From Novilysobacter antarcticus (GTDB lineage Bacteria > Pseudomonadota > Gammaproteobacteria > Xanthomonadales > Xanthomonadaceae), in contig NZ_JAIEUJ010000001.1 in the NCBI RefSeq assembly GCF_019802285.1, positions 744,001 through 808,000 on the forward strand: DNA of 64,000 bases. The letters run 5' to 3'. Positions within the stretch are counted from its first letter, which is position 1. Every line of letters starts with the position of its first letter. This document shows, piece after piece, positions 16,955-36,030 of this stretch. The notes under the pieces were generated by a model. The model was not told where the DNA came from. It made no database searches and saw only the letters and a list, made by a program, of their open reading frames with translations. Made by a program: the position numbers and the translations under genes.

Positions 16955-19900
16955 TCAGCCCACTGCCGCATCGCGCCCCATCGTCAAATGCACGCGGTGC
17001 TGTTGGCCATCATCACGCAGCGGAATCCTCGCGGCTTCGCCACGCACCCTAAGTGGCTCACCGTCCAGCGTGCCATCGCGGATTCCGCGGCTGACGCCCG
17101 CGGGGTTGTCGACCTGAATTCGATATTCCGAACTGCGATGGCGGTAGATCATGCGGAAGCCGGGCCACGCCCTTGGAATACACGGGTCTACCAGCAGCTG
17201 ATCACCACGCAGCCCGAAGCCGAGCAGCGCCTCGATCCCGGCGCGGTAAAGCCAGGCAGCGGAGCCGGTGTACCAGGTCCATCCGCCGCGTCCTGCCAGT
17301 GCGCCGACCGAATAGACATCGGCGCAGGACACATACGGTTCGACACCGAAATGCTCGGCGGCCGTGGACGATATCGAATGGCCAATCGGATTGAAGAAGT
17401 CAAACAGCTCCCACGCCTTGGCGGCCTCGCCCAAGGCGGCCCAGGCAAAGATCGACCAGATGCAGCCGTGGGTGTATTGCCCGCCGTTTTCCCGGACGCC
17501 GGGCGGATAGGCCTTGATATAACCCGGATCGTGGGGGCCGTTCTCGGCAAACGGCGGCGTAAACAGCCGCGCCAGGCGGTGGCCCCGGTCAACCAGTTCA
17601 CGATCGGTGGCATGCATGGCCGAACGCGCTCGATCCGGATCGCCGGCGCCCGACATGACGGCCCAGGACTGCGCGATCGAATCGATCCGGCACGCCTCCT
17701 GGCTGGCACTGCCCAACGGCGTCCCGTCATCATAGTAGCCGCGTCGGTACCACTGCCCGTCCCAACCTGCGTCTTCCATCGCCGCTTTCACGGTGACTGC
17801 AACTTCATCCCAGGCATCCGACCGGACGGTATCGGCGCGTGAGCGGGCGATGGGCACAAACCGGGTAATCACGTCCAGAAGCAGCCAGCCCATCCAGACG
17901 CTCTCGCCGGTGCCCTGCTCTCCTACGGCGTTCATGCCGTCATTCCAGTCTCCCGTGCCCATCAGCGGCAGCCTGTGGGGACCGAGCGTCAGGGACGCGT
18001 CCACCGTGCGCGCGCAATGCTCGTAGAGACTTCCATGGGTCGCGGACACGGTTGGGGTAAAGAACGCATCCTTGTGGCCCTCCTCCAATGCAGGGCCCTC
18101 GAGAAAGGGCACGCTCGCGTCAAGGATCTCGACGTCCGCGGTCACCGTCAGGTAATGCAGCACTGAATACGGCAGCCAAAGCCTGTCGTCGGTCATCCGG
18201 CTGCGAAGGCCCTTGCCGCCTGGCGGCAACCACCAGTGCTGCACATCGCCCTCAATGAACTGGCGCGAGGCGGCGCGCAGCAAGTGCTCGCGGGCGACGT
18301 CGGGGTCGGAGATGCAGAGCGCCATCACGTCCTGCAACTGGTCGCGGAACCCGTACGCGCCGCTGGCCTGGTAGTACGCCGTGCGCGCCCACATCCGGCA
18401 GGAGAGGACCTGGTAGAGGAGCCAGTGGTTGAGCAGCAGGTTCGTTGCCGGGTCCGGCGTCTCGACCTGGAGCGTGGCGGTCACAGAGTGCCAACGGTCG
18501 TGGATCGCGCCCATGACAGTGTCGAGATCCATACCGCGAGCGTGCCGCACCAGATCGCTGGCGGCGTCTGTGGATTCCGCATCGCCGATCAGGAAACGCA
18601 ACTCAGCGGTCGCGCCGGGTTCAATCTCCAGTACTGACTGCAACGCCGCACACGGGTCCCTGCCCGAGCCCCGCCAGCCGGACAGCGATGAACTGCCCTG
18701 CAGCGCGGCCGGCCGATCGATCGAGCCATACCTGCCGAGGAACTCGCCGCGATCGCAGGTAAAGGCGGCCATTTCCGCGCCGATATCCGCAAAGGCAACG
18801 CGCTCGCCGAAGTCCTCGCGCCAGCGATTGACCGCAAACACGGCGCCGGTACGCGGATCCTGCGACGTGGCCACGTGCGGCCCGGGAACGGTTCCGTTGG
18901 GTCCCAATGCCCATTGCAGGTAGGCGGTGACCGAAATGGTCCGTCTGCGCTCCGAATGATTGCGGACGCGCAGCCCGGATATCTTGACCGCATCTTCAAG
19001 CGGCACGAGCTGAAGCAGTTCGATTCCAAGACCGTCAAAATCGTGCGACCACTTCGTCCAGCCCCTGCCATGGCGGGTGATCCGGTTGGTCGCCGCTCCC
19101 GGAATCGGCAGAGGTGTGGCACTCCACAGAGCGCCACTGTCGTTGTCGCGCAGGTACAGCACCTCGGAGGGCTCGTCGGTGACGGGGTCGTTGGCCCAGG
19201 GGGTAAGCGGGTTCTGCTGGCTGTTGCCGGAGAACGTGTGCCCACCACCTTCCGCCGTCGCGATGAAGCCGAACGCCGGATTGGCGACGATGTTGCTCCA
19301 CGGCGACGGGGTGCAGCGAGTTCCATCGGTGCGGATGATGTATTCCTCGCCGCCCAGGGAGAACCCGCCGTAACCGTTGTCGAACTGCAGGGAAAGCGCC
19401 GCAGTGCGAAAACCCGCGTGATCGGACGGTCGTGGCTCCGGATCGGGCGGCGGCGTTAGAGGTTCCGGTCCATGGACCAGCGGCGCATCCTCCTCCGCGA
19501 CAACGCCGGTAGCGTCCGGCCTGCCCGCGTCGCCGCCTGCGGGGACAATGACCCGGGCCGCGCCGATCAAGCCGTCTCGCAAGCCCGGGTCAAGCTCATC
19601 GGCGCGCAGGTAGAACGCTTCCGCTTTCGCGAGCGCGGCCCGCGTTGCCAGCTTCCGCGTCTGCTCTGCGACGAGGCCGTCGAGCGACTGATCGGCCGCG
19701 GATCCTTTCAGGACGCTTCCGCTTGCCAGTACGACCACGTCCGCCCCGATTCCCATCGATTGCCAGTAGCGCTGGGCGCGCAGCAATTCGTGGACGCGTT
19801 CGGGAACTTCCGGCTCCTCAATGGCAAGCAGCGCGATCGGACGATCGCCGGAGATACCGGCCGACCAGAGAACGGGCGCTCCGCCTGTCGCCCGAGCCAG

Positions 19901-20887
19901 CGCGTCCTCTGAGGCGCGCCACGCCGGGTTCGACACCAGCAGCCCAGCGAGCAATTCGCAGCAGCGTTCCGCGCAGGCGTGATCGACCCGGAACTTCGCC
20001 CGCCTTGCGATCTCGCATGCACGCGCCTCGTCGATGACATGTCCACAGTGCTCGGCGGGCGGCGCGCCTCTTGCCAGCGCCAGGGCTCGCTCCCGCGTGT
20101 CTGCGGCGCAGCTCCAAAATGCGATCCTGACCGTTGCGCCCGCCGCTATCCGCACCCGTCGTCGCAGACTGATCACGGCATCCAGCACGTCGCCGGCAGT
20201 CTCGCCCAGGACATCGCCGTTCCACACCGCATGCGCGTTCCCCAGGCGCCGTCCGCGCCCGAGGAAGCGGCGACGATCGCTTTCGTATTCGCAGGTATCC
20301 GTCGGCTGGCCTTCCACCAGCGCTACCTGGGCGACCCAGCATGCCTTCTCGTCGGCGGAACGGCGACGACGAGTGGCGAGCAGCACGCCGCCATCGGCCA
20401 CCCACTCGGTACGCACGAAAAGCTTGGAAAACGCCGGATGCGACGCATCGGCCGCGAGGGACCCCAGCACAGGCTCGCTGTAGGAAGTCACCTCGATTAC
20501 CCGCGCCCGCGGACTGCGGTTCGTGATGCTCAGGTGCCGCAGCTCGGCGTCCCGATCGGCAGCGACGACCACGGTCAGGCAGGTTTCAAGGGCGTGCGCG
20601 ACCCGCCTGCTGGAAAACACGCCATACGCCGCATCGGTGGTCACCTCTCCCGCAGACGTAGACATCGGCTGCCGGGTCGGTGACCACACCGCGCCGCTGT
20701 CGGCATCGCGCAGCACCAGATAGCTGCCCCACGCATCGCAGGTCGGGTCTTCGTGCCATCGGGTCAACGCCCGACCGCACCATCGACTCCACCCTGAGCC
20801 GGCATCGGTCAGCAGGGTGGTGAAGCGGCCGTTCGACAGCAGGTGGACACGCTGCACGGCAATCGTCGGGGCGTTCGGAGCGGACAT
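16955..20887 (-). CDS. GH94 family protein, NdvB C-terminal-like (possible beta-1,2-oligoglucan phosphorylase)
   Basis: The 1310-residue protein has no transmembrane segment or signal peptide. It contains two GH94-type beta-sandwich domains: the first begins RVHLLSNGRFTTLLTDAGSGWSRW (in part) at residue 12, the second near residue 500 with FDNGYGGFSLGGEEYIIRTD and CTPSPWSNIVANP. The C-terminal (alpha/alpha)6 barrel carries GDWNDG at residues 979-984; Asp983 corresponds to the general acid of GH94 phosphorylases. The order equals the C-terminal half of cyclic beta-1,2-glucan synthases, but the GT84 glycosyltransferase is absent. GH94 also includes 1,2-beta-oligoglucan phosphorylase, which yields glucose 1-phosphate; this suits the neighbouring genes. 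ATG 20887 has a strong GGAGGGAG site. Phosphorylase activity is inferred. Confidence 0.82.
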   Translation of the reverse strand: MSAPNAPTIAVQRVHLLSNGRFTTLLTDAGSGWSRWCGRALTRWHEDPTCDAWGSYLVLRDADSGAVWSPTRQPMSTSAGEVTTDAAYGVFSSRRVAHALETCLTVVVAADRDAELRHLSITNRSPRARVIEVTSYSEPVLGSLAADASHPAFSKLFVRTEWVADGGVLLATRRRRSADEKACWVAQVALVEGQPTDTCEYESDRRRFLGRGRRLGNAHAVWNGDVLGETAGDVLDAVISLRRRVRIAAGATVRIAFWSCAADTRERALALARGAPPAEHCGHVIDEARACEIARRAKFRVDHACAERCCELLAGLLVSNPAWRASEDALARATGGAPVLWSAGISGDRPIALLAIEEPEVPERVHELLRAQRYWQSMGIGADVVVLASGSVLKGSAADQSLDGLVAEQTRKLATRAALAKAEAFYLRADELDPGLRDGLIGAARVIVPAGGDAGRPDATGVVAEEDAPLVHGPEPLTPPPDPEPRPSDHAGFRTAALSLQFDNGYGGFSLGGEEYIIRTDGTRCTPSPWSNIVANPAFGFIATAEGGGHTFSGNSQQNPLTPWANDPVTDEPSEVLYLRDNDSGALWSATPLPIPGAATNRITRHGRGWTKWSHDFDGLGIELLQLVPLEDAVKISGLRVRNHSERRRTISVTAYLQWALGPNGTVPGPHVATSQDPRTGAVFAVNRWREDFGERVAFADIGAEMAAFTCDRGEFLGRYGSIDRPAALQGSSSLSGWRGSGRDPCAALQSVLEIEPGATAELRFLIGDAESTDAASDLVRHARGMDLDTVMGAIHDRWHSVTATLQVETPDPATNLLLNHWLLYQVLSCRMWARTAYYQASGAYGFRDQLQDVMALCISDPDVAREHLLRAASRQFIEGDVQHWWLPPGGKGLRSRMTDDRLWLPYSVLHYLTVTADVEILDASVPFLEGPALEEGHKDAFFTPTVSATHGSLYEHCARTVDASLTLGPHRLPLMGTGDWNDGMNAVGEQGTGESVWMGWLLLDVITRFVPIARSRADTVRSDAWDEVAVTVKAAMEDAGWDGQWYRRGYYDDGTPLGSASQEACRIDSIAQSWAVMSGAGDPDRARSAMHATDRELVDRGHRLARLFTPPFAENGPHDPGYIKAYPPGVRENGGQYTHGCIWSIFAWAALGEAAKAWELFDFFNPIGHSISSTAAEHFGVEPYVSCADVYSVGALAGRGGWTWYTGSAAWLYRAGIEALLGFGLRGDQLLVDPCIPRAWPGFRMIYRHRSSEYRIQVDNPAGVSRGIRDGTLDGEPLRVRGEAARIPLRDDGQQHRVHLTMGRDAAVG

Positions 20888-20994
20888 GCTCCCTCCATCG
20901 GGCAGCATGGAATCTTGATGCTACTCCGGCATCGTTACGCTGCCTTGAAGGCCCATCGACTACCGTCGCCGTATCGCAGCGGACGGATACCACA

Positions 20995-22272
20995 GTGACC
21001 GATGAGCGACTGATCGACCGCTTGCAGCGAGCCGCATTTGGCTACTTCTCCGGCGCGTTCAATCCGGCCAATGGACTTGTGGCGGACACAAGCCGGGCAG
21101 GCTCGCCATGCAGTATTGCGGTGGTCGGCTTTGCCTTGGCCACCTATCCGGTGGCCGTCGAGCGTGGATGGATCGGTCGGCGCGATGCGGTGCAACGGGC
21201 GCTGGCAACCCTGCGCTTTTTCCACGAGAGCGATCAGAGCGGAGCGGCCGACGCCACCGGCCACAAGGGGTTTTACTACCACTTCCTGGACATGGATTCG
21301 GGTACGCGGATGTGGCGCTCGGAGTTGTCCACAATCGACACTGCCCTGTTCATTGCCGGGGCGCTGCTTGTCGCCCGCTATTTCACCGACGACACCCATG
21401 ATGAGCACGAGCTGCGCTTCCTGGCCGACGCCCTGTACCTGCGCGTGGACTGGCAGTGGGCCTGTGCAGACCGGCCCACGATCCGCCAGGGGTGGAAGCC
21501 GGAGTGCGGGTTCCTTCACTACGGCTGGGACGGCTACGACGAGGGCATCCTGCTGTATGTGCTGGCCGCGGGCTCGCCCACCCACCCGATCGACAGCGCC
21601 AGGTACGCCGCTTGGACGGCCACCTACCAATGGGAAAACCTCTACGGCGAGGAGTTCCTGTATGCGGGACCGCTGTTCGTGCACCTGTTTTCACACGCGT
21701 GGATCGACTTTCGCGGCATACGCGACCCCTTCATGCGCGAGAAGCGCAGCGACTATTTCGAGAACACCCGCCGTGCCATCGCCGTCCAGCGTGAATATGC
21801 ATGGCGCAATCCGCACGGTTTCGCCGGCTATGACCGCGACTGCTGGGGCCTGACCGCATGCGATGGTCCGGACGAGAGCAACCCTCAACTGGCCAACCAC
21901 CTGGGGCGGCTGTACGGCTACGCCGCACGCGGGGTTCCTTACGGCCCGGATGACGGCACCTTGAGTGCCTGGCTCGGCCTGTGCTGCCTGCCCTTCGATC
22001 CGGCGGTCGCGCTGTCAGCCACCCACGCGCTGTTGCAGCGGTATCCACAAACGCTGCAGAAGGAGCGCTTCGCGAGCGGCTTCAACCCCTCGCTCGCAGA
22101 TGATGACGGCGCTCCGTGGGTATCCGCTGGCGCCTTCGGACTGGATCAGGGACTGGTGGTGATGATGGTGGAGAACCACCGCAGCGGGCTGATCTGGAAC
22201 CTGATGCGCGACTGCGGATACCTGCGTAACGGCTTGAGAAACGCCGGCTTCGGCGAAGGCTGGTTGGAATGA
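20995..22272 (+). CDS. Glycoamylase-domain (PF10091) glycoside hydrolase, GH144-like
   Basis: This 425-residue protein begins LIDRLQRAAFGYFSGAFNPANGLVADTS and continues with GFYYHFLDMDSG and ELSTIDTALFIAGAL, the conserved blocks of the glycoamylase (PF10091) family. The family includes GH144 endo-beta-1,2-glucanases and the middle domain of NdvB-type cyclic glucan synthases. Later WKPECGFLHYGWDGYDEG and AYDRDCWGLTACDGP also match. No signal peptide is visible, so the substrate would be cytoplasmic or imported. It is divergent from the GH94 gene with 107 bases between the start codons, suggesting shared control. The start is GTG at 20995 with a poor ribosome binding site. It overlaps the oxidoreductase gene by four bases. 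Confidence 0.8.
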   Translation: MTDERLIDRLQRAAFGYFSGAFNPANGLVADTSRAGSPCSIAVVGFALATYPVAVERGWIGRRDAVQRALATLRFFHESDQSGAADATGHKGFYYHFLDMDSGTRMWRSELSTIDTALFIAGALLVARYFTDDTHDEHELRFLADALYLRVDWQWACADRPTIRQGWKPECGFLHYGWDGYDEGILLYVLAAGSPTHPIDSARYAAWTATYQWENLYGEEFLYAGPLFVHLFSHAWIDFRGIRDPFMREKRSDYFENTRRAIAVQREYAWRNPHGFAGYDRDCWGLTACDGPDESNPQLANHLGRLYGYAARGVPYGPDDGTLSAWLGLCCLPFDPAVALSATHALLQRYPQTLQKERFASGFNPSLADDDGAPWVSAGAFGLDQGLVVMMVENHRSGLIWNLMRDCGYLRNGLRNAGFGEGWLE

Positions 22273-23786
22273 GTTCCTTTGCCCGCGAGAGTCTGGTTTC
22301 CCATGCGCCCGAAGACGGCTACGAGGATGAGCGCCTCGCCAATGTGCGCCCACCCGGCTGGCGGAACCCGGAACCGGCGGCGCGGTATGACCTGGTCATC
22401 CTCGGTGGCGGTACCGCAGGGCTGACCGCGGCCGCCGAGGCGCGCGAGCGCGGTGCCAGCGTCGCCCTGATCGAGCCCCGCCTGCTCGGCGGCACCTGTC
22501 TCAACACGGGGTGCGTGCCTTCCAAGGCCCTGATCCACAGCGCCCGCATCTGCGCGCACTTGCGGGACGCCAGCAGATACGGAACGGCTGACGTCGACGC
22601 GGTGCAGGTCGATTTTGCCGCCGTCATGGAGCGGATGCGGGCGATCCGGGCGCGAATCAGCCGGGGCGACGCGGCGTCACGCCTGTCAGGCATGGGTACG
22701 GATGTGTTTTTCGGCCCGGCGCGATTCACTGCAGCCGATTCGCTCATTGTCGCAGGGACCGTCCTGAGGTTCGACAAGGCGCTGATCGCCACCGGCGCAC
22801 AACCCCTGATCCCTGCCATCCCGGGGTTGGCCGAATGCGGCTTTTTGACCAGTGACACCGTGTTTGACCAGACCACCCTGCCCGACCGGATCCTGGTGAT
22901 CGGCGGCGGTCCGCTCGGCTGCGAGATGGCCCAGGCCCTATGTCGCTTCGGCGCACGGACAACAATCGTGCAGAACTGGCCCCTGTTCCTGCCGAAGGAA
23001 GAGCGCGACGCAGCGCAGGTGCTTTCCGGGGCCTTTGCCCGTGACGGACTGGAGGTGCGACTGAATACCCGGGTTGTGGATATTCGGGTCGAGGGGGATC
23101 GCAGGATCGCCGAACTGCTGAGCGACGACGACCGGAGCACCCTCGAATTCGATGCCATCCTGACGGGAACAGGCCGCTCCCCCCGGGTGGAGGGGCTGGA
23201 CCTGGAATTGGCCGGGATCGAGTACGACGGCCATCGCGGAGTCCACGTCGATGATTGCCTGCGCACCAGCAATCCGCGGGTGTATGCCGCCGGTGACGTG
23301 TGCCTGGTGCACCGCTTCAACGACACGGCGCGCGCCTCAGCACGGCTTGCGGTCGCCAACGCACTCGACGGCGCAAATGAACGTCTGAGCGAGCTCGTGA
23401 TCCCCTGGTGCACCTACACCGATCCGGAAATCGCGCACGTGGGCATGTACGTCCGTCACGCGCGGGAGAAGGGTATCGGGGTGAGGACATTTACCGTGCC
23501 GATGCATACGGTGGACCGGGCAATCACCGACGGTAATGACGCCGGCTTCGTCAAGATCCACGTGCGCGACGGCACCGCCGAAATCCTGGGTGCCACGATC
23601 GTAGCCCGCCACGCAGGCGAAATGATCAGCGAGATCACCCTGGCCATGGTCGCCAAGCTGGGTCTCGACAAGCTCTCGCAGGTGATTCACCCCTACCCCA
23701 CCCAGTCCGAAGCGATCCGCATGGCAGCCGACGCTTTTTCCCGCAGCCAGCGTGGCCCGGCCGTCACGAGCGAACTGCGAGACTGA
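22269..23786 (+). CDS. Class I pyridine nucleotide-disulfide oxidoreductase (mercuric reductase-like)
   Basis: The 505-residue flavoprotein has DLVILGGGTAGLTAAAEA (FAD binding), the redox disulfide GGTCLNTGCVPSK around residues 75-87, the NAD(P) motif VIGGGPLGCEMAQAL, the second FAD motif VYAAGDVCL, and a dimer-interface VIHPYPTQSEAIRM with the His and Glu typical of the family. A polar N-terminal extension of about 35 residues precedes the core; no HMA metal-binding domain is present. The C-terminal Cys pair of true mercuric reductase is missing (the tail ends SELRD), so mercury reduction is unlikely. It sits between the glucanase and 6-phosphogluconate dehydrogenase genes, in an ATGA overlap with the former. 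The physiological disulfide substrate is unknown. Confidence 0.88.
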   Translation: MSSFARESLVSHAPEDGYEDERLANVRPPGWRNPEPAARYDLVILGGGTAGLTAAAEARERGASVALIEPRLLGGTCLNTGCVPSKALIHSARICAHLRDASRYGTADVDAVQVDFAAVMERMRAIRARISRGDAASRLSGMGTDVFFGPARFTAADSLIVAGTVLRFDKALIATGAQPLIPAIPGLAECGFLTSDTVFDQTTLPDRILVIGGGPLGCEMAQALCRFGARTTIVQNWPLFLPKEERDAAQVLSGAFARDGLEVRLNTRVVDIRVEGDRRIAELLSDDDRSTLEFDAILTGTGRSPRVEGLDLELAGIEYDGHRGVHVDDCLRTSNPRVYAAGDVCLVHRFNDTARASARLAVANALDGANERLSELVIPWCTYTDPEIAHVGMYVRHAREKGIGVRTFTVPMHTVDRAITDGNDAGFVKIHVRDGTAEILGATIVARHAGEMISEITLAMVAKLGLDKLSQVIHPYPTQSEAIRMAADAFSRSQRGPAVTSELRD

Positions 23787-23816
23787 TCGGACGCATTACT
23801 GAAAAGGAGGCACGAG

Positions 23817-24722
23817 ATGAAACTCGGCATGATCGGCCTTGGGCGCATGGGGGCCAACATGGCCCGCCGCCTGATCCAGGGCGGCCACTCCATCGTCGGG
23901 TTCGATCCCGACCCCGACGCCCGCAAAGCGCTGGAAAAAGACGGCGCGCAGACCGCCGACAGTCTCAAGGCGCTGGTCGAATCGCTGCCCGGGCCTCGCA
24001 ACGTCTGGATGATGGTCCCCGCCGGCGACATCACCGAAAGCACGGTCGGCGACCTGATGGCGTTACTTGACGCCGGCGACACCCTGATCGACGGCGGCAA
24101 CTCCAACTACAAGGACACAGTGCGTCGGGCCAACTCGCTGGCGGAGCACGACATGCATTACGTCGACTGCGGCACCAGCGGCGGTGTCTGGGGGCTGGCC
24201 GAGGGCTACAGCCTGATGATCGGTGGCGAACCGGCTCCGGTGGAGGCGCTGCGCCCGGTGTTCGAGACCCTTGCCCCGGCGACCGACCAGGGCTGGGGCC
24301 ACGTGGGCCCGCCCGGCGCCGGACACTTCACCAAGATGGTCCACAACGGCATCGAGTACGGAATGATGCAGGCCTACGCGGAAGGCTTCGCGATTCTCCA
24401 GCACAAGCAGGAGTTCTCCCTGGACCTGCACCAGGTCGCCGAGATCTGGCGCAACGGCAGCGTGGTCCGTTCGTGGCTGCTCGACCTCACCGCCCGGGCC
24501 CTGGACCAGAACCCGACCATGGACGGGATCGCGCCCTGGGTGGACGACTCTGGCGAGGGCCGATGGACGGTGGCAGAGGCAATCGACCTGGACGTGTCCG
24601 CGCCGGTGATCACCCTGGCGTTGCTGGAGCGGTTGCGCTCGCGCGACAAGGACTCCTATTCCGACAAGCTGCTGGCCGCGATGCGCAACCAGTTCGGTGG
24701 GCACGCCATCAAGAAGGAATGA
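23817..24722 (+). CDS. gnd: 6-phosphogluconate dehydrogenase, decarboxylating (short GntZ type)
   Basis: The 301-residue enzyme starts MKLGMIGLGRMGANMARRL with the Rossmann GxGxMG motif, then DGGNSNYKDT, VDCGTSGGVWGL and FTKMVHNGIEYGMMQAY, the substrate and catalytic Lys/Asn region. Length and motifs match the short GntZ/YqeC group, about 300 residues, rather than the 470-residue E. coli Gnd. It oxidises 6-phosphogluconate to ribulose 5-phosphate and CO2; cofactor preference within this group varies (NAD or NADP) and cannot be assigned by eye. A strong AAAAGGAGG site precedes the ATG. It is the last of three co-directional genes and faces the zwf operon. Confidence 0.93.
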   Translation: MKLGMIGLGRMGANMARRLIQGGHSIVGFDPDPDARKALEKDGAQTADSLKALVESLPGPRNVWMMVPAGDITESTVGDLMALLDAGDTLIDGGNSNYKDTVRRANSLAEHDMHYVDCGTSGGVWGLAEGYSLMIGGEPAPVEALRPVFETLAPATDQGWGHVGPPGAGHFTKMVHNGIEYGMMQAYAEGFAILQHKQEFSLDLHQVAEIWRNGSVVRSWLLDLTARALDQNPTMDGIAPWVDDSGEGRWTVAEAIDLDVSAPVITLALLERLRSRDKDSYSDKLLAAMRNQFGGHAIKKE

Positions 24723-24833
24723 GGCCGTGAACGTGCGGCGGTCGGCCGACGGACCGCGTCGCTGGAAAGAACCAATGGGCGCCGGCGGTACACTGGCACT
24801 CCACATTGCCGTCGCTCGATACCCCCCAACACC

Positions 24834-25382
24834 ATGCGTAATCCCCTGCAGGACCAGCTGCTCAAAGCGGGCTTGGTCAAGAAGAACAAGGTCACCCAGG
24901 TTGTCCGCGAGCAGAACAAGAAGCGGCACGGCAAGGCCGAGCCCAACGCAGCGCCTGAAGCCGATGCCGTGGATGCCCAGCGGCTGCTTGCCGAGCGCGT
25001 GGAACGCGATCGTGCGCTGTCAGCCGAACGCAACGCCCAGGCGCGCGCCAACGAGCTGAAGGCGCAGGTGCGGCAGATCGTGGAGATGCATCGGGTCAAG
25101 CGCGAGGGTGAGATCGACTACCGGTTCACCGACGGCAATGCGATCCGCAGCGTGCTGGTCAACGAGGCGTTGCGCGCCCAGCTCGCAAAGGGAACGCTGG
25201 TGATTGTGCGCCATGGCGACAGCCATGAGCTGGTGCCCCGTGCTGCCGCGGAAAAGATCCGCGAGCGTGACCCGGAGGCCATAGTGCTCGACCACGGACG
25301 CGCCGACGACACCTCGAGCAAAGCTGGCGATGACGACGATTTCTACAGCCAGTTCAAGGTTCCCGACGATCTGGTCTGGTAA
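24834..25382 (+). CDS. DUF2058 family protein (YaiL-like)
   Basis: The 182-residue protein starts MRNPLQDQLLKAGLVKKNKV, with a highly basic region, a central coiled-coil (RLLAERVERDRALSAERNAQARANELKAQ) and a C-terminal globular part with EIDYRFTDG, all typical of DUF2058/YaiL nucleoproteins. The tail ends YSQFKVPDDLVW, a conserved end of the family. It may bind RNA or ribosomes, but its function is not established. It is 111 bases after gnd and converges on tkt with 15 bases between, so it is probably an independent unit. Confidence 0.88.
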   Translation: MRNPLQDQLLKAGLVKKNKVTQVVREQNKKRHGKAEPNAAPEADAVDAQRLLAERVERDRALSAERNAQARANELKAQVRQIVEMHRVKREGEIDYRFTDGNAIRSVLVNEALRAQLAKGTLVIVRHGDSHELVPRAAAEKIRERDPEAIVLDHGRADDTSSKAGDDDDFYSQFKVPDDLVW

Positions 25383-25397
25383 TCGCTGCGGCGCCGT

Positions 25398-27446
25398 TCA
25401 GGCCAGCAGCGCCCGCGCCCGTTTCACGACGTTGTCGACGGTGAATCCGTAGGCAAGGGCAACTGCCTGCATTGGCGCCGACGCGCCAAAATCATCCACC
25501 GACAGCACGGCGCCACCGTCACCGACCCAGCGATGCCACCCCTGCGCGCTGCCGGCCTCGACCGCCAGTCGGGCAGTGACCGCGGGCGGCAGGACCGAGT
25601 CGCGGTATTCCCGCGGCTGGGCCTCAAACAGATCCCAGCTCGGCATCGACACGCACCGGACACCGACCCCATCGCGCCGCAGCCGTCCGGCCGCCTCCAC
25701 GATAAGACTGACCTCCGAGCCGCTGGCGATCAGGATGATCTGCGGCGAGTCGCCCAGGTCGGCATCCAGCACATAGGCGCCCTGCGTCACTCCATCGGCG
25801 GCGGCGTATACCTGCCGGTCCAGCGTTGGCAGATCCTGCCGGGTCAGGATGAGCACGACCGGCCGGTCGCGCATTTCCACCGCGACGCGCCAGGCGACGG
25901 CGGTTTCGTTGGCGTCGGCCGGGCGAATCACGCTCAGGCGCGGAATGGCGCGCAGGCTGGCGAGCTGCTCCACCGGCTGGTGGGTCGGGCCGTCCTCACC
26001 CAGCAGAATGCTGTCGTGGGTGAACACGTGAACCAGATGCAGCCCCATCAGCGCCGCGAGGCGAATGGGCGGCCGCATGTAGTCGGAAAAGACCAGGAAC
26101 GTCGCGCCGTAGGGGATGAACCCGCCGTGCGCCGCCATCCCATTCACGATCGCTCCCATCGCATGCTCGCGCACCCCGAAATGCAGGTTGCGCCCGGCCA
26201 GGCTCCAGCCGCCGCCGTCGGAGCCTTGCTTGTCCTCGCCCGCGGCCAGCGGAGGATTGAAGTCACCCATGCCCTTCAGGGCGGTCTTGGTCGACGGATC
26301 CAGATCAGCCGAACCGCCCGACAGCTCCGGCAGGTGCGGCGCGATGGCGTTCATTACCCTGCCGCCGGCGACGCGGGTCGCCATTCCCTTCGCATTGGCG
26401 GGAAATACCGGGAGTTCCGCATCCCAGCCGGTCGGCAGGACGCCCTCCAGGCGCCGCCGCAGTTCTCTTGTCAGATCCGGCTGCGCCGTGGCATAGGCCT
26501 GCATCTGGCGATGCCACACTTCTTCCTGGGCGGCGCCCCGCCCAACCGCTGTTTGCATATGGGTGAGCGCCTCATCGGGGACCCGGAAAGCCGGCTCCAC
26601 CGGCCAGCCCAGGTTCTGTTTGGTCAGGCGCACCTCTTCCTCACCGAGCGGTGACCCGTGAGCCTCGAAGCTGTCCTGCTTGTTGGGCGAGCCATAGCCG
26701 ATGTGGGTACGGACCAGAATCAGTGACGGTCGCCGGACTTCGTCAGCGGCAGCGCGGATCGCCGCATCGATGGCCGCCACGTCATTGCCGTCCTCGACCC
26801 ATTGCGTGTGCCAGCCGTAGGCCCGGAAGCGCGCTTCGCAATCCTCGGTGAACGCGATATCGGTGGCCGCTGACAGGGTCACGAAGTTGGCGTCGTACAG
26901 ACAGGTCAACTTGCCCAGTCGCAGATGCCCGGCGAGCGAGGCGGCCTCGGAGGCGACGCCTTCCATCAGGTCGCCGTCGCTGGCGAGCATCCAGGTACGG
27001 TGGTTGATCACCTCGTGCCCGGGCCGGTTGTACTGCGCCGCCAGTTGCGCCTCGGCCATCGCCATGCCGACCGCGTTGGCGAACCCCTGCCCGAGCGGAC
27101 CGGTGGTCACCTCGACCCCGGGCGTGTGACCGCGCTCGGGGTGGCCGGGGGCCTTGCTGCCCCATTGGCGGAACTGCTTGATGTCATTCAACGAGATGTC
27201 GTAGCCGCTCAGGTACAGCAGGCTGTAAAGCAATGCAGAGCCGTGACCGGCAGAAAGGACGAAGCGATCCCGGTCCGCCCAGTCCGGGTTGCGCGGGTTG
27301 GCCTTGAGCCAGCGCGACCACAGGACATACGCCATCGGCGCGGCGTCAAGCGGGAGTCCCGGATGTCCGCTGTCCGCCTTCTGCACCATGTCCACGGACA
27401 GGAAACGGAGGGTGTCGATACAGAGCTGGTCGATTCGCGCGGACAT
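25398..27446 (-). CDS. tkt: Transketolase
   Basis: The 682-residue enzyme has the N-terminal [22 protein letters not shown], the thiamine diphosphate motif with [14 protein letters not shown] and LYDANFVTL, the pyrimidine-domain stretch [32 protein letters not shown], and the C-terminal domain. It transfers two-carbon units between sugar phosphates in the non-oxidative pentose phosphate pathway. Length is close to E. coli TktA (663). It is the last gene of the zwf-tal-pgi-pgm-tkt operon, nine bases after pgm, with GAGG before the ATG. Confidence 0.97.
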
Positions 27447-27455
27447 GCTGTTACC

Positions 27456-29123
27456 TCACTGTTCGGTGGTCGGGTCCTCCAGGGCGGCGTCAACAGTCTC
27501 CTGTGCATCCTTGAGCAATTGCTGCAGATGGTCGGCGTCGCGAAAACTCTCGGCGTAGATCTTGTAGATGTCCTCTGTCCCGGAGGGACGGGCGGCAAAC
27601 CAGCCACTGGCAGCGACAAGCTTGATGCCACCAATGGCGGCGTCGTTGCCGGGTGCCTTGTCCAGCACCTGCTGGATCGGCTCGCCGGCCAGTTCGGTGG
27701 ATGCGATGGCGTTGGGGGTCAGCGCGGCGAGCGCGCGCTTTTGCGCCTTGGTCGCGGGCGCTTCCACCCGATCGGTGAACGGCTCGCCATAACGGTCACA
27801 CAACCGGCGGTAGATCACGCCGGGATCGTTACCCTCACGGGCAGTGATTTCCGCGGCAAGCAGGGCCGGTGCGATGCCGTCCTTGTCGGTCGTCCAGACC
27901 GAACCGTCGCGACGCAGGAAGGAGGCACCCGCGCTTTCCTCGCCGCCGAAGCCCAGCGTGCCGGAAAACAGCCCGTCCACGAACCACTTGAAACCCACGG
28001 GAACCTCATACAGGTGCCGGCCCAGCCCCGCGGCGATACGGTCGATCATGGCGCTGCTGACCACGGTCTTGCCGATGCCGGCCCCCGTGCTCCACTGCGG
28101 ACGGTTGCGGAACAGGTAATCGATGGCGACGCTGAGGTAGTGGTTGGACGGCATCAGTCCAGCGCTGGCGGTCACGATGCCGTGGCGGTCGTGGTCGGTA
28201 TCGCAGGCGAAGGCGACGTCGTAGCGATCCTTCAGGCCGATCAGCCGGCTCATCGCATACGGGGAGGAGGGATCCATGCGGATGCGCCCGTCCCAGTCCA
28301 GGCTCATGAAGCCGAACTGCGGATCCACCTGCTCGCTGACGACGTCCAGCGCGATCCGGTAGTGCTCGGCAATGCGCGCCCAGTAATGCACCCCTGCCCC
28401 GCCCAGCGGATCCACGCCCAGCCGAAGGTCTGCGCTGCGGATCAGGTCGAAGTCGATCACGTTGCCCAGATCGGCGACATAGGCCGAAAGGAAGTCGTGC
28501 TCGCGGGTGGTGCCGGCGGCGCGGGCGCGCCCGCCGGTCCAACGCCGCACGCCGTCCAGTCCCTTCGAAAGGCTTGCATTGGCGTGTTTCTGGATCCACG
28601 CGGTCACGTCCGTATCGGCGGGGCCGCCGTTGGGCGGGTTGTACTTGAAGCCGCCGTCCGCCGGCGGATTGTGCGACGGGGTGATCACGATGCCATCGGC
28701 GAGACCTCTTTCCCGTCCTGAGTTGTGGACCAGGATCGCGTGGGAGATGGCCGGCGTGGGCACGGGTTCGTCATCCGCCGACACGTGCACCTGGACGCCG
28801 TTGGCTGCCAGCACTTCCAGCGCGGTCTCCAGGGCCGGGGCGGAAAGCGCGTGCGTGTCGGCACCAATGAAGATCGGGCCGTCGATCCCCTGCCCCTTCC
28901 GGTAGGCACAGATCTCCTGGGTGATGGCGAGGATGTGGTCCTCGTTGAAACTCCCTTCCAGCGACGAACCACGATGGCCGGAGGTCCCGAACGACACCGT
29001 CTGCGCCGGGTTGGATGGGTCCGGCCGGGTCTGGAAGTACGCGTTGACCAGACGGCCGACGTCGATGAGGTCACGAGCCTCTGCCGGCAAGCCGGCGCGC
29101 TTGTCGATGCGTGTGCCCATCAT
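27456..29123 (-). CDS. pgm: Phosphoglucomutase, alpha-D-glucose specific
   Basis: The 555-residue protein matches E. coli Pgm (546). It shows the phosphoserine loop [19 protein letters not shown] (Ser of TPSHNPP), [12 protein letters not shown] near the N-terminus, the metal-binding loop with [10 protein letters not shown] and the substrate loop [16 protein letters not shown]. It interconverts glucose 1-phosphate and glucose 6-phosphate, so it would carry a GH94 product into the pentose phosphate pathway. ATG 29123 forms an ATGA overlap with the pgi stop; a longer open frame upstream lies inside pgi and is rejected. Placement in the middle of an oxidative pentose phosphate operon is unusual. 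Confidence 0.96.
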
Positions 29124-30790
29124 TGGCGCCCCCGCGCTGCGCGGTAGCGCTGGATCAGGGTGTTGGTCGAGCTGTCGTGGCCCAGCGCCGGCGTGTCCGC
29201 CGCCTTGAGTTCCTCTGCAAGGGATGTGGTCAGTTGCTTGCCCAGTTCGACACCCCACTGGTCGAAGGAATCGATGTTCCACAGCGTCCCCTGCACGAAC
29301 ACGCTGTGCTCGTAGAGCGCTACCAGGCTGCCCAACGTGTGCGGCGTCAACCGGTCGGCAAGGATGGTGTTGCTGGGACGGTTGCCGTCAAACACCCGGT
29401 GCGGTTGCAGCGCTTCCGGGGTGCCCTCCGCCGCGACCTGTGACAGCGTCTTGCCGAACGCGAGCGACTCGCCCTGGGCCAGCAGGCTGGCAATCAGGAG
29501 GTCATGCTGGTCGCCGGCAGCGTCACCCGTGCCGGCTTTGCGTTGCAGCGGCAGCGGGTTCAATGGATGGCAGAAACCGATGAAGTCACACGGCACCAGC
29601 CGCGTGCCCTGATGGATCAACTGATAGAACGAGTGCTGCCCGTTGGTGCCGGGCTCGCCCCAGTAGACCGGTCCGGTCTGGTAGTCCACCCGGCTGCCCT
29701 CGGCGGTCACGTGCTTGCCGTTGCTCTCCATCGTGAGCTGTTGCAGATAGGCGGGAAACCGGCTCAGGTACTGCGAGTAAGGCAGCACCGCGACTGTATT
29801 GGCGCCGAGGAAGTTGCTGTTCCAGATCCCGATCAAGCCCAACAGGACCGGCAGGTTGCGCTCCATCGGGGCAGTACGGAAATGCACGTCCATCGCATGG
29901 AACCCCGCCAGCATTTCGCGGAAGCGCTCCGGGCCGATGGCCAGCATCGTCGACAGGCCGATGGCGGAATCCATCGAATAGCGGCCGCCCACCCAGTCCC
30001 AGAACCCGAACATGTTGGCGGTGTCGATACCGAACGCCTCCACGCCGTCGGCATTGGTGGAAACCGCGACGAAGTGTTTCGCAATCGCCGCCTCATCGCC
30101 CAACCCCTGCAAGCACCAGGCGCGCGCGGCGTGGGCGTTGGTCAGCGTCTCCAGCGTGGTGAACGTCTTGGAGCATACGATGAACAAGGTCTCCGCCGGA
30201 TCCAGGCCGCGGGTGGCCTCGCTGAAATCCGTGCCGTCCACATTGGACACGAAATGGAACGAGAGCTCGCGCTGGCTGTAGAAGCGCAAAGCCTCGTAGG
30301 CCATCACCGGCCCCAGATCCGAGCCCCCGATGCCGATGTTGATGACGTTTCGGATCGGCTTGCCGGAATGGCCCGTCCACTGGCCAGTGCGCACGCGATT
30401 GCAAAAGGCCGCCATCCGATCCAGTACGGCGTGCACCTCGCCAACCACGTCCTCGCCGTCAACGATCAGCTCGCTGTCGGCCGGCATTCGCAGGGCCACA
30501 TGCAGGGCAGGACGGTCTTCGGTGACGTTGATCTTGCCGCCGGAAAACATCGCCTCGCGACGCTCCTCCAGGCCGCAGGCGCGCGCCAGGGCAAACAGGA
30601 GGTCCAGCGTCTCCCGGTTGATCCGGTTCTTGGAGTAATCCAGGTAAAGCCCGCCGCCATCCGCCGCCATCCGCGCGCCCCGGTCGGGCTCGTCGGCAAA
30701 CAGCTCACGCAGATGGCGCGGCGCCATCCACGCAAGGTGCTCTTCCAGCGCCCTCCATTGCGGCTTCGCGGTGAGTGACCCGTCCTTCAT
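29120..30790 (-). CDS. pgi: Glucose-6-phosphate isomerase
   Basis: The 556-residue enzyme carries both PGI signatures: the region with [19 protein letters not shown] and the C-terminal [13 protein letters not shown]. It also has [11 protein letters not shown] and [12 protein letters not shown] for phosphate binding, and ESNGKHV. It interconverts glucose 6-phosphate and fructose 6-phosphate. In an oxidative pentose phosphate cycle it would return fructose 6-phosphate to zwf. Both ends overlap neighbours by four bases (ATGA with tal and pgm), so translation is coupled. Confidence 0.97.
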
Positions 30791-31881
30791 CCGCCGCGTT
30801 CCTCTCCGGCGAGGCTGCGGCTGCGCGACTCGATGGTCTGCAGGAGCTCTTTCCAGGACTTCACGAATGCCTCGGCACCTTCCACCTGCAAACGATCCGC
30901 CAACGCGGCGATATCCACTCCCGCCGCGGAGAACCGCGCGAGCGTCGCCTCCGAATCGCCACCGTCCACTGCCATGACGCCCGAGAGCCGGCCGTGGTCG
31001 GCAAACGCGTGCAGGGTCTTCTCGGGGATCGTGTTGATGGTGTCCGGCGCGGCGAGCGCTTCGATATACAGCGTGTCCGACGCGTTGGGATCCTTGGTGC
31101 CGGTGCTCGCCCAGAGCATCCGTTGCGGCTGCGCGCCGCGTGCGGCGAGCTTCTGCCAGCGCGGGGACTCAAGCAGTTCGCGGTAGGCCTTGTAGGTCTG
31201 CTGCGCGACCGCGATGCCCAGCGTGTTGTGCAGGTCCGCGGGCACCTTGTCGGCGACCGCGCGGTCCCAGCGGCTCACGAACAACGACGCTACCGACGCC
31301 ACGCGCGCGTCCAACCCGGCCTCAAGCCGCCGCTCCAGGCCGCGCATGTACGCCTCGGCCACGGCCAGGTATTGCGCCGTCGAGAACAGCAGCGTCACGT
31401 TGACCGGCACACCGGCGAATATCGACTCCTCGATCGCCGGCACCCCTTCAGGCGTGCCCGGAATCTTGACGAATAGATTCGGGCGATCGCCTTGATCGTG
31501 GATCGCCTGGGCTGCGGCAATGCTGCCGGCGGTATCGGAGGCCAGCAGCGGTGAGACTTCCATCGATACCCAGCCATCGACTCCATCGGTCGCTTCGAAC
31601 ACGGGCTTGAACAGGTCCGCCGCGCGGCGCAGATCCTCCAGCGCAAGCTCGATGAACAGCGCCTCGCCCGACTTGCCCTCTCCCGCCTTTTTTCGCATTC
31701 CCTCGTCGTAGGCGTCACTGCCACCGACGGCCTCGTTGAAGATGCTCGGGTTGGACGTCAAACCAGTGACCGAGAAGTCGGCGATGTACCGCGCCAACGT
31801 GCCGTCGTCCAGGATCGTTCGGGAAATGTTGTCCAGCCACAGGCTCTGGCCCATGTCGTGAAGTGATCGAGTCGTGCTCAT
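30787..31881 (-). CDS. tal: Transaldolase (long, Tal type 2)
   Basis: The 364-residue enzyme starts [24 protein letters not shown] and has the signature [13 protein letters not shown] and the Schiff-base lysine in [12 protein letters not shown]. Length and sequence match the longer transaldolase group of actinobacteria, cyanobacteria and some proteobacteria rather than the 317-residue TalB. Some bacteria fuse this transaldolase to glucose-6-phosphate isomerase; here the two are separate but overlapping genes. It links sedoheptulose 7-phosphate and glyceraldehyde 3-phosphate to erythrose 4-phosphate and fructose 6-phosphate. It begins 104 bases after zwf. Confidence 0.95.
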
Positions 31882-31985
31882 GCGTCCTCCGGTGTGCGGC
31901 ATCGCCCAACATGGTAGTGCCCCGGGGCGGCGAGGGAGCAGTGCCATTGATTGGCAGGCGCGGCGCGATCAAGGTCCGCGCGTTT

Positions 31986-33392
31986 TCAGCAGGGGTGGCT
32001 CTGCTCGGGCTGCGGGTCCTGCCAGTGGCGGCCGCCGGTGACAAGCTCGCTGGTGGATTCCGGACCCCAGCTGCCGGGTTCGTAGATCGTGAGCGGCGTG
32101 TTGTGATTGCCATGCGAATCGGGCAGCACGGGCTCGACGATGCGCCACGCTTCTTCCACCGAATCGTCGCGGGTGAACAGGCTGGTGTCGCCCTCAATGG
32201 CGTCGCCAAGCAGTTGCTCGTAGGGCGATTTGCCTTCATCGCGCGAGCTGCGGGCAACCAGCTCGACCTGGCGCCCTTCCATCCCCTCGCCCGCCTTCTT
32301 CACCCGCGCGCCAGTGGAGATCACCACTTCGGGGCTCAGGCGGAAGCGGAAATAGTTGGTCTCGGCCAGTGAAATCCGGTCGAACAGTTCCAGCGGCGGC
32401 GGCTTCAGGTCAACCATCACCTGGGTGCTGGTGATGGGCAGCTTCTTGCCGGCGCGGATATAGAACGGGACGCCGGCCCAGCGCCACGTGTCGATGTACA
32501 GGCGCAGTGCCACAAAGGTCTCCACCTGCGAGTCCGCGGCAACCCCAGCCTCGTTGCGATAGCCGCGGAACTGTCCGCGGACCACGTCCTCCGGCCGCAA
32601 CGAGCGCGTGGCACGGAACAGACGCAGTTTCTCGGCGCGCAGCGATTCGGGGTCGCGGCCGGCCGGGGCATCCATGGCCAGCAGCGAGAGGACCTGGAGC
32701 AGGTGGTTCTGGACCACGTCGCGGATGGTGCCGACCTCCTCGTAGAACGCACCACGCCCCTGCACGCCAAAGTTCTCGGCCATCGTTATCTGCACGCTGT
32801 CCACATAGGTGCGGTTCCAGACCGGCTCGAGGAACGTATTGGCGAAACGGAAATACAGCAGGTTGCGCACGGCCTCCTTGCCCAGATAGTGGTCGATACG
32901 GAACACCGAGGATTCCGGAAACACCTGGTGCAGCTCGCGGTTGAGCTCCCGGGCCGAGGCCAGGTCGCGACCGAACGGCTTCTCCACGATCACCCGGGCG
33001 TCGGCGTTGCATCCCGATGCGGCCAGCCCCTGCACCACCGTGCCGAACATGCTTGGGGGGATGGCCAGGTAATGGATGGGACGGGTGGCGGAACCCAAGG
33101 CCTGTTTCAGGCCGCGGAACGTCTGCGGGTCACTGTAATCGCCGTCGATATAGCGCAACTGCTCCGACAGGCGCGAAAACGCGTCCTCATCCACCCCGCC
33201 GTTGGCCTCCAGGCTCGCGCGCGCCCGCTCACGCAAGCGCTCCAACGACCAGCCGCCGCGGGAAACGCCAATCAGGGGCATGTCGAGCTCGCCGCTCCGG
33301 ATCATCGCCTGCAGCGCCGGGAAGATCTTCTTGTACGCAAGGTCCCCGGTGGCGCCGAAGAAAACGAATGCGTCTGAGGGTGGCTTGGCCAT
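31986..33392 (-). CDS. zwf: Glucose-6-phosphate 1-dehydrogenase
   Basis: The 468-residue enzyme starts [22 protein letters not shown] (nucleotide-binding GxTGDLA) and has the active-site signature [21 protein letters not shown] and [11 protein letters not shown]. It oxidises glucose 6-phosphate to 6-phosphogluconolactone with NAD(P) and opens the operon zwf-tal-pgi-pgm-tkt. The ATG at 33392 follows GGGAG; an open extension upstream to 33524 runs into eptA and is rejected. No 6-phosphogluconolactonase (pgl) gene follows, although zwf and pgl are adjacent in many proteobacteria. Confidence 0.96.
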
Positions 33393-33471
33393 GCCGCTGC
33401 TCCCGTGAGTCCACCGGATGATTGTGCCCGCCCGGACGTGACGGCAGCCAAATGGCGGCGCGAGCGTGGAC

Positions 33472-35133: not shown

Positions 35134-35957
35134 GCCGGCGCTCCTGGCCCGTACGGACGAAGGATCCACAGCGACCCTGCCAAGGCTACAAGCCAACAGA
35201 TCATCAACGTCCACACGTCGTGGGACAGGAAGTGCGCTCCGCGCAACTGCTGGCTGATGCCGAACAGGGCGCCGGCCGCCAGGGCAAGGGCCAATCCGGC
35301 CCATCGCAAGCGCGGCTGCACCGCATGGAAGAAGAAGTACAACGTCACCCACGCGTAGCCGGCGCTGGCGTGCCCGGCGGGAAAACACGCCGCGTGACCC
35401 ATGCTTTGGGGCCGTGACTCGAACAACCCGACAAACGGCTGCAAGCCACCGTAGCGCTGGAGGTCCCATGGGCAATCCATTCCACTGCCTGCCTTGAGCA
35501 GCGAGACGGCGACCGAGCCCGCCAGGGTTGCAAAGACCAGATAGCCCAGGGGGCGACGCCAATGGGTCAGCCTCGAATCGACAAGACTCCACAGCCATGC
35601 GATCAACACACCCAGCCAGGCGGCGGCGGACACGGCCTTGCCCGCCTCATGCACCAACGTGGTGGTAATCCAGCTGTCGCGCAGGGCCCACGCATTGCCC
35701 TGCGCCGCATACAAGAGGTCGGCGAGCAGAAAATCGCCGTGTGCGCTGATAAGGACCACGCTGACCGCCGCCGTCGCCACAAGCGGATACACAAGGTGAT
35801 TGCGCAGAAAAGCCCGCTTCGACCTCCCCGTTGCGGGCAGGAGCCCAGCTGGACAGAACTCGTCGGATCGCGTTGCGGTAGAGGCGGGCACGTCGGGACT
35901 ACGGGAGTGGGACCAGCGCCAAGCATGAGCACCCCGTTGTAGCGATCTCTCAGCCAT
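35130..35957 (-). CDS. PAP2-family membrane phosphatase
   Basis: The 275-residue protein has about five membrane helices and the three PAP2 acid phosphatase motifs: KAGSGMDCPWDL (variant of KX6RP), FPAGHASAG (PSGH type) and SQQLRGAHFLSHDVW (SRX5HX3D type, Ser-Gln for Ser-Arg). This group accompanies eptA/mcr genes in many bacteria. It may dephosphorylate lipid A, diacylglycerol or undecaprenyl diphosphate intermediates. It is the first gene of a two-gene operon, divergent from a response regulator gene. The start ATG 35957 lacks a clear ribosome binding site and sits inside a direct repeat, so the true start could be later at a non-ATG codon. Confidence 0.87.
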   Translation of the reverse strand: MAERSLQRGAHAWRWSHSRSPDVPASTATRSDEFCPAGLLPATGRSKRAFLRNHLVYPLVATAAVSVVLISAHGDFLLADLLYAAQGNAWALRDSWITTTLVHEAGKAVSAAAWLGVLIAWLWSLVDSRLTHWRRPLGYLVFATLAGSVAVSLLKAGSGMDCPWDLQRYGGLQPFVGLFESRPQSMGHAACFPAGHASAGYAWVTLYFFFHAVQPRLRWAGLALALAAGALFGISQQLRGAHFLSHDVWTLMICWLVALAGSLWILRPYGPGAPA

Positions 35958-35964: not shown

Positions 35965-36030
35965 GCGTTCGTTATCGAGCCCCAACTGCCCGGACTAGAC
36001 TTGCGTGGATCCGTGCCGCAGCCGAGCCAA

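What the first reader, a model, noticed from the sequence alone, without database searches (positions are those of the whole stretch)
16955..33392. Beta-1,2-glucan genes joined to a complete oxidative pentose phosphate cycle
Within 16.5 kb lie a GH94 protein, a PF10091/GH144-like glucanase, gnd, and the operon zwf-tal-pgi-pgm-tkt. If the GH94 protein phosphorolyses beta-1,2-oligoglucans, its glucose 1-phosphate goes to glucose 6-phosphate (Pgm), is oxidised by Zwf and Gnd, and returns to fructose and glucose 6-phosphate through Tkt, Tal and Pgi. That is a closed NADPH-generating cycle fed by a storage or periplasmic glucan without ATP use. An NADPH-type disulfide reductase sits between glucanase and gnd. 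The gene identities are firm, but the coupled pathway is inference. I do not know of a published description of this module.
Basis: partly seen in the sequence, partly recalled or inferred. Interest (0 to 1): 0.8.

Follow-up and report, generated by a model that had tools for sequence, protein, structure and literature searches.

The report
Glucan-fed pentose phosphate gene module
Genes that look able to break down a bacterial sugar polymer (beta-1,2-glucan) inside the cell sit beside genes of a sugar pathway that makes reducing power, and similar groupings recur in distant bacteria, which suggests a transferable fuel module whose activity is still untested.

Summary
The genes are as named, and the linkage is more than local chance. 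GH94, the PF10091 glucanase, a flavoprotein, gnd, zwf, tal, pgm and tkt recur together in varying subsets and orders in Xanthomonadales, Burkholderiales and one Gemmatimonadetes MAG. The set is patchy: 3 of 3 other genomes of the genus lack the glucanase. The glucanase is a signal-less GH144 with its clan residues intact. [quoted passage not shown] the genome also encodes a full synthase. In three alphaproteobacterial loci GH39 plus a ROK kinase stands where GH94 plus Pgm stands elsewhere. This favours feeding glucan-derived glucose 6-phosphate into the oxidative pentose phosphate pathway. Gnd carries an NAD+-type acidic residue (15 of 16), so the "NADPH cycle" is only half supported. The flavoprotein, the glucanase's most constant partner, has lost one or both redox cysteines in 29 of 66 sequences, so disulfide reduction is not its conserved role. 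Nothing biochemical was tested. New variant of a known kind.

The parts
15299..16876 (-). Rieske [2Fe-2S] plus FAD/NAD(P) reductase, directly downstream of GH94; possible member of the module
   Evidence: Pfam PF00355 + PF07992; same neighbour in L029 (62%) and between zwf and gnd in L012 (48%)
16955..20908 (-). Stand-alone GH94 protein, 1317 aa, likely beta-1,2-oligoglucan phosphorylase
   Evidence: Pfam PF06165, PF17167; [quoted passage not shown] motif DWNDGMN at 987-993, 181 of 185 invariant residues kept
20909..20994 (.). 86-base divergent intergenic stretch between GH94 and the glucanase
   Evidence: coordinates; no sigma-70-like promoter was found from 20800 to 36200
20995..22272 (+). 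GH144 endo-beta-1,2-glucanase-like protein, 425 aa, no signal peptide seen
   Evidence: PF10091; 348 bits to 8xul XCC2207/XcSGL; D115, E183, F228, Y309 invariant in 119 of 119
22269..23786 (+). MerA-like FAD oxidoreductase (NF004991), the most constant partner of the glucanase
   Evidence: NF004991 690 bits, cut-off 620; 73 of 97 loci, 72 of the 73 directly downstream on the same strand
23817..24722 (+). gnd, short-form 6-phosphogluconate dehydrogenase, probably NAD+-type
   Evidence: NF007161 and TIGR00872, both over cut-off; D30 in 15 of 16
24834..25382 (+). DUF2058 protein between the two halves; probably not part of the module
   Evidence: PF09831; found in 1 of 80 loci (L029) and in genus relatives without the module
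25398..27446 (-). tkt, transketolase (second copy in this genome)
   Evidence: TIGR00232; other copy at C1:42734-44689, 51%
27456..29282 (-). pgm, phosphoglucomutase; the profile starts at residue 58, so the true start is probably near 29111
   Evidence: TIGR01132 847 bits
29120..30790 (-). pgi, glucose-6-phosphate isomerase
   Evidence: PF00342, NF001211; only match of the genome
30787..31947 (-). tal, transaldolase of the TIGR00876/NF002881 type
31986..33524 (-). zwf, glucose-6-phosphate dehydrogenase
   Evidence: TIGR00871 486 bits; only match of the genome

Best explanation
A horizontally acquired module mobilises beta-1,2-glucan in the cytoplasm and feeds it to the oxidative pentose phosphate pathway. 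The signal-less GH144 cuts the glucan, including cyclic glucan that the synthase itself can no longer cleave. The stand-alone GH94, a free-standing relative of the synthase's phosphorylase domain, turns linear oligosaccharides into glucose 1-phosphate. Pgm makes glucose 6-phosphate; Zwf and Gnd oxidise it; Tkt, Tal and Pgi return carbon to hexose phosphate. The genome's own cyclic glucan synthase is the likely source. Zwf probably gives NADPH and Gnd probably NADH. The flavoprotein is an NAD(P)H-using partner whose conserved reaction does not need its disulfide; a transhydrogenase-like or oxidase-like role is my guess. Shown by sequence: gene identities, catalytic residues, linkage, replacement pattern, patchiness. 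Inferred: glucan specificity, direction of flux, location, coenzymes, horizontal gain, the flavoprotein's role.
For: Catalytic and clan residues kept in glucanase and GH94. GH94 nearest to synthase GH94 domains, 1005 bits against 267 for cellobiose phosphorylase, and in the tree nearest to synthases that lie beside this glucanase type. A full synthase is encoded in the same genome. Linkage in 97 loci against 20 control loci, with different gene orders in different lineages. GH94/synthase and GH39 nearly exclude each other (23 and 16 of 97 loci, 1 shared); pgm in 10 of 23 against 0 of 16, ROK in 0 of 23 against 3 of 16. zwf, pgi and a close gnd only in the module here. PMC11842490 (passages): a finished cyclic glucan is not cleaved by its synthase.
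Against: No activity is tested. 68 of 97 loci show none of zwf, gnd, tkt, tal, pgi, pgm, pgl, and the Mesorhizobium-type loci mostly lack them, so glucanase plus flavoprotein can work without these genes nearby. The replacement pattern rests on 3 ROK loci and was noticed before it was counted. G002 has the pentose phosphate set without this glucanase. Gnd is NAD+-type by residue, so NADPH output is half of what was claimed. The window GH94 has no PDB match to LpSOGP (5h3z) at E 0.001. Intracellular beta-1,2-glucan as a reserve is not shown here. Evidence from outside Pseudomonadota with pathway genes is one MAG (L012).
Confidence: 0.5

Rival explanations
1. Genomic island: the glucanase-flavoprotein pair and the pentose phosphate or phosphoketolase sets travel together because each helps under stress, without flow of carbon from glucan to glucose 6-phosphate.
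For: Patchy distribution; partners vary and include phosphoketolase and acetate kinase (xfp 8, ackA 3 of 97); metal-efflux genes lie nearby in the window and on some plasmids; glucanase-flavoprotein pairs without pathway genes are common.
Against: The same enzyme set is kept through changed gene order, and the two front ends (GH94+pgm, GH39+ROK) both lead to glucose 6-phosphate.
Confidence: 0.25
2. The module consumes outside glucan: beta-1,2-oligosaccharides are imported and used as food, and the pathway genes serve general sugar breakdown.
For: L022 has a solute-binding protein and a MalK-like ATPase just upstream of the pair.
Against: No sugar importer was seen among the window genes scanned (not every window gene was scanned), and the neighbour clusters counted do not include a recurrent importer that I annotated; unannotated neighbours remain.
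Confidence: 0.12
3. The cluster serves glucan synthesis: GH94 and GH144 trim chains made by the synthase and Pgm supplies glucose 1-phosphate for UDP-glucose.
For: The synthase lies next to pgm in G002 and L020 and within the cluster in several loci; GH94 reactions are reversible (PMC11842490 passage).
Against: zwf, gnd, tal, tkt and pgi have no known part in UDP-glucose supply (general knowledge); GH39 with a ROK kinase fits breakdown. galU was not searched.
Confidence: 0.1

Closest known systems
[quoted passage not shown]
   Same: GH94 phosphorylase or SGL-clan glucanase acting on beta-1,2-glucan in one gene cluster
   Different: Those clusters are described with ABC importers and beta-glucosidases; the words pentose and phosphoglucomutase do not occur in PMC12369401, nor pentose in PMC11842490. 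Here pentose phosphate genes and a flavoprotein take that place
[quoted passage not shown]
   Same: Window GH94 aligns with its C-terminal 1240 residues; D990 falls on catalytic D2528 (my arithmetic; PMC11842490)
   Different: No glycosyltransferase and no cyclisation domain; free-standing
XcSGL (XCC2207), GH144 beta-1,2-glucanase of Xanthomonas campestris (PMC12102758, named sections and passages)
   Same: Fold family, clan residues, highest PDB match
   Different: XcSGL has a signal peptide; the window protein has none seen, and its type has other neighbours
Glycogen-fed oxidative pentose phosphate pathway of cyanobacteria (recalled; only a search listing seen)
   Same: Polyglucan, phosphorylase, Pgm, Zwf, Gnd in sequence
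   Different: Alpha-glucan there, beta-1,2-glucan here; here the genes form one cluster with a flavoprotein

Membership tests
GH144 (SGL clan) | Residues equivalent to XcSGL E239, F286, Y367 | tested here: met
   E183, F228, Y309 by the 8xul alignment (constant offset 14) and invariant in 119 of 119 sequences; residues named in PMC12102758
GH144 (SGL clan) | Hydrolysis of beta-1,2-glucan | not testable with these tools
   needs an assay
GH94 | Supersandwich and catalytic domains with the general acid Asp | tested here: met
   PF06165, PF17167; D990 in DWNDGMN
[quoted passage not shown]
   No match to LpSOGP 5h3z at E 0.001, while the genome's own synthase matches it at 3e-9; activity not testable
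[quoted passage not shown]
   Window protein has only the GH94 part; the protein at C2:795088-803769 has the whole
Oxidative pentose phosphate pathway | Zwf, lactonase and Gnd present | tested here: met
   zwf and gnd in the cluster, pgl elsewhere in the genome
Oxidative pentose phosphate pathway | Both dehydrogenases give NADPH | tested here: inconclusive
   Gnd D30 in 15 of 16 and TIGR00872 (NAD+) over cut-off, but NF007161 (named NADP) also over cut-off; Zwf Arg in 3 of 7
Oxidative pentose phosphate pathway | rpe and rpiA present in this genome | not tested
   no search made
Mercuric reductase (MerA) | C-terminal cysteine pair and TIGR02053 score | tested here: not met
   Window protein ends without a pair; 0 of 66 in the aligned parts, which may be trimmed at the end; 400 bits against cut-off 454
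Disulfide reductase | Conserved redox-active CxxxxC pair | tested here: not met
   Present in the window protein, but both cysteines in only 37 of 66 sequences

The most novel reading that the evidence does not exclude
A family of mobile 'glucan battery' modules: beta-1,2-glucan is an intracellular reserve, and a free-standing form of the cyclic glucan synthase's own phosphorylase domain discharges it. Interchangeable front ends (GH94+Pgm, or GH39+ROK kinase) and back ends (oxidative pentose phosphate genes, or phosphoketolase+acetate kinase) are combined around a cytoplasmic glucanase and a flavoprotein of unknown, disulfide-independent reaction. If so, beta-1,2-glucan has a redox and energy role in addition to its known osmotic and symbiotic ones.
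Probability: 0.3. Interest if true: 0.82.

Novelty: new variant of a known kind. Interest (0 to 1): 0.62.

Why it matters
Beta-1,2-glucans are mostly discussed as periplasmic or secreted osmotic, symbiosis and virulence factors. A recurrent signal-less glucanase and phosphorylase joined to pentose phosphate genes would make them an internal fuel, comparable to glycogen. The flavoprotein, found at E 1e-110 in 6 of 299 sampled genomes and each time next to the glucanase, is a clear target for a new reaction.

Tried and rejected
Thiol switch (flavoprotein reducing cysteines of the glucanase): no cysteine column is conserved in flavoprotein-linked glucanases (highest 56%); C171 occurs in 49% of them and in none of the others, too weak. 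Glucanase as GH194: dropped after reading that XcSGL is GH144. Degenerate GH94 (long branch in the tree): rejected, 181 of 185 invariant residues kept. Insertion site around DUF2058: no synteny with the window was found in 40 kb of each of 3 genus relatives, so no boundary could be drawn. Single origin of all stand-alone GH94s: not shown; 14 of 15 form one clade, L012 lies in an unresolved fork with three synthases, and 6% of bootstrap trees have the 15 as one group. Promoter scan: none found; terminator-like sites at chance level. Paper searches whose listings showed no description of the module.

Dropped rows and selection: the GH94 tree used 26 rows with over 80% coverage; six shorter matches were left out, and one row (L101, contig end) was relabelled by hand from stand-alone to synthase. 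Eight of 25 listed plasmid hits, out of 93 records, were opened: two entered the count; H1, H16 and H19 showed partners but did not enter; H7, H8 and H13 showed none. GH39, ROK, pgl, HAD, xfp and ackA markers were taken from some of these same loci or their relatives, so patterns were seen first and counted after. The control is one family only. Gene calls in fetched loci came from my own crude script. FADox was scored on the five best candidates of each genome.
Full report
Observation. Pfam and NCBIfam give GH94, PF10091, an NF004991 FAD oxidoreductase, short-form gnd, DUF2058, tkt, pgm, pgi, tal and zwf at the stated place. 'Complete' is too strong: pgl is elsewhere (C4:89155), and rpe and rpiA were not searched in this genome. 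A Rieske-FAD reductase at 15299-16876 directly follows GH94 and recurs in L029 and L012, so it may belong.

Organism. The window is G000:C1:744001-808000 of a 2.78 Mb genome. The named glucanase nearest in identity among the 80 loci is from Lysobacter concretionis (75%). In 99 genomes of its family 52 have a match, but only the window genome and G049 (66%) have this type; the other full matches are 42-49% identical, of the XcSGL type, with two weak pieces in G011. Three of three other genomes of the genus have none, and they have no GH94 match either. The module is therefore patchy and probably acquired.

Glucanase. The best solved relative is 8xul, XCC2207. The paper on it (PMC12102758; abstract, passages, sections 5 and 11 and part 1 of 2 of section 12 seen) places XcSGL in GH144 and names E239, F286 and Y367 as clan residues. 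With a constant chain offset of 14 they fall on E183, F228 and Y309 of the window protein; D115 fits the general-base position. All four are invariant in 119 of 119 sequences (73 flavoprotein-linked including the window, 26 not linked, 20 XcSGL-type). A hydrophobic signal-like N-terminus was counted by a crude rule in 19 of 20 XcSGL-type proteins, 8 of 72 linked and 1 of 26 unlinked ones, so this type looks mostly cytoplasmic.

GH94. [quoted passage not shown] PMC11842490 (passages) gives D2528 as the catalytic residue of that domain. By the alignment (907 to 2425, one gap, offset 19 between chains 8rf9 and 8rf0) D990 of the window falls on it; this is my arithmetic, and that part of the synthase row was cut in the output. 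181 of 185 residues invariant in 24 relatives are kept. In a tree of 26 GH94 regions, 14 stand-alone proteins form one clade (100/100); with L012 and three synthases that lie next to this glucanase type they form a group (99/98) apart from the other 8 synthase rows (midpoint root, one label set by hand). So the enzyme looks like a free-standing synthase domain. That is a better reason than GH94 membership alone to expect beta-1,2 specificity, but no proof. The genome has a full synthase at C2:795088-803769, 2035 bits over residues 67-2850. The same review says a finished cyclic glucan is no longer cleaved by the synthase, which gives an endo-glucanase a place in the route.

Linkage. In 97 loci of this glucanase type the flavoprotein is present in 73 and directly downstream on the same strand in 72 of those; a GH94 match in 18, gnd 16, pgm 16, tkt 14, GH39 16, a synthase match (Cgs) in 10, xfp 8, tal 6, zwf 6, pgl 6, pgi 2. 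At least one of zwf, gnd, tkt, tal, pgi, pgm, pgl was seen in 29 of 97, and in 20 of 69 with at least 6 kb on both sides; at least two in 15 of 97. In 20 loci of the XcSGL-type paralogue from the same family there is no flavoprotein, GH94, synthase, gnd, pgm, tkt, tal, pgi, GH39, ROK, xfp or ackA; zwf in 1 and pgl in 2, so one or more of the seven in 2 of 20 and two in 1 of 20. Gene order differs between lineages: one-strand synthase-type GH94 (cut by the end of the stretch)-gnd-zwf-HAD-tal-pgm-glucanase-flavoprotein in Polaromonas L030; GH94-zwf-Rieske-gnd-glucanase-flavoprotein in the Gemmatimonadetes MAG L012; gnd (edge)-zwf-HAD-tal-pgi-tkt-pgm-glucanase-flavoprotein in Simplicispira L067. 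Rearranged but kept together argues for selection. Against this, 68 of 97 loci, among them most Mesorhizobium-type ones, show none of the seven pathway genes.

Replacement. GH94/synthase and GH39 nearly exclude each other: 23 and 16 of 97 loci, one with both (L083, full synthase). pgm occurs in 10 of 23 against 0 of 16, ROK kinase in 0 of 23 against 3 of 16. In L025, L026 and L054 the kinase (nearest NCBIfam model polyphosphate-glucose phosphotransferase, below its cut-off) sits with pgl; rpe is in L025 and L054, zwf in L026 and L054, tkt and gnd in L054. Phosphorylase with mutase and glycosidase with kinase are two ways to glucose 6-phosphate.

Own copies. zwf and pgi each gave one match in this genome, in the module. 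For zwf, 18 of 20 genomes matched: 67-69% in G002, G021 and G049, otherwise 36-42%; for pgi the other six were 40-45% in four and 67-73% in G002 and G021. gnd has no close match in the 3 other genus genomes (best 32-34%; whether those are 6-phosphogluconate dehydrogenases was not tested). tkt is a second copy. G049 carries synthase-zwf-HAD-tal-pgm-ackA-xfp on one contig and glucanase-flavoprotein-gnd on another. G002 has zwf-HAD-tal/pgi-xfp-ackA-tkt-gnd, and pgm divergent from its synthase, without any match to this glucanase.

Corrections to the redox reading. Gnd has D30 at the end of the second strand of the nucleotide fold, where an acidic residue points to NAD+ (rule recalled, from no call); D in 15 of 16 Gnds. 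The NAD+-dependent model TIGR00872 is over its cut-off, but so is NF007161, named NADP-dependent. Zwf has Arg89, but only 3 of 7 keep Arg. The flavoprotein has C77 and C82 here, yet only 37 of 66 sequences keep both; the rest read SC, RC, CG or SS, in every context including Polaromonas L030, Simplicispira L067, Luteimonas L028 and Rhodanobacter L014 and L020. Its conserved reaction can hardly be disulfide reduction. At the genome level it is tied to the glucanase: 6 of 299 genomes at E 1e-110, all 6 with the pair adjacent; the reverse does not hold, as 13 of the 299 have the glucanase over 450 bits. The 6 are 3 genera, so the effective number is small. A transhydrogenase-like role between Zwf's NADPH and Gnd's NADH is a guess from recalled knowledge of SthA.

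Verdict. Best reading: a mobile, modular cytoplasmic beta-1,2-glucan mobilisation set coupled to the oxidative pentose phosphate pathway, with a flavoprotein partner of unknown reaction. Seven searches of the paper library listed no description of it; subscription papers are mostly not held, and only three papers were opened, in part. The parts and the principle are known, the combination is not in what I searched: new variant of a known kind.

Noticed in passing
22269-23786 and homologues L014, L020, L028, L030, L031, L067, L071, L083: The flavoprotein family repeatedly lost its redox cysteines (SC, RC, CG, SS patterns; 29 of 66) while staying next to the glucanase; C218, C345 and C381 are invariant in the same 66 rows.
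   Followed up: partly
L073, L077, L082, L128, L133, L135, L136, L085: The same glucanase type lies near phosphoketolase, with acetate kinase in some, in other lineages and on a Polaromonas plasmid: 8 of 97 loci, none of them with GH94/synthase or GH39.
   Followed up: partly
L087 (Criblamydia sequanensis plasmid, 12001-13266): A chlamydial plasmid carries the glucanase beside acetate kinase, ribose-phosphate pyrophosphokinase, glgP and phosphoketolase.
   Followed up: no
15299-16876: Rieske-FAD reductase fusion next to GH94; in L012 a relative lies between zwf and gnd, in L029 it has the same place.
   Followed up: partly
33472-35598: Lipid A phosphoethanolamine transferase (NF028537 over cut-off; MCR models far below theirs) whose frame overlaps the start of the zwf frame on the same strand.
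   Followed up: no
L093:11243-13798: In G002 transaldolase and glucose-6-phosphate isomerase matches fall in one 851-aa frame, a probable fusion.
   Followed up: no
L018, L030, L067, L009, L014, L028, L095: A HAD phosphatase recurs beside tal (between zwf and tal in L018, L030, L067, L095); the window lacks it.
   Followed up: no
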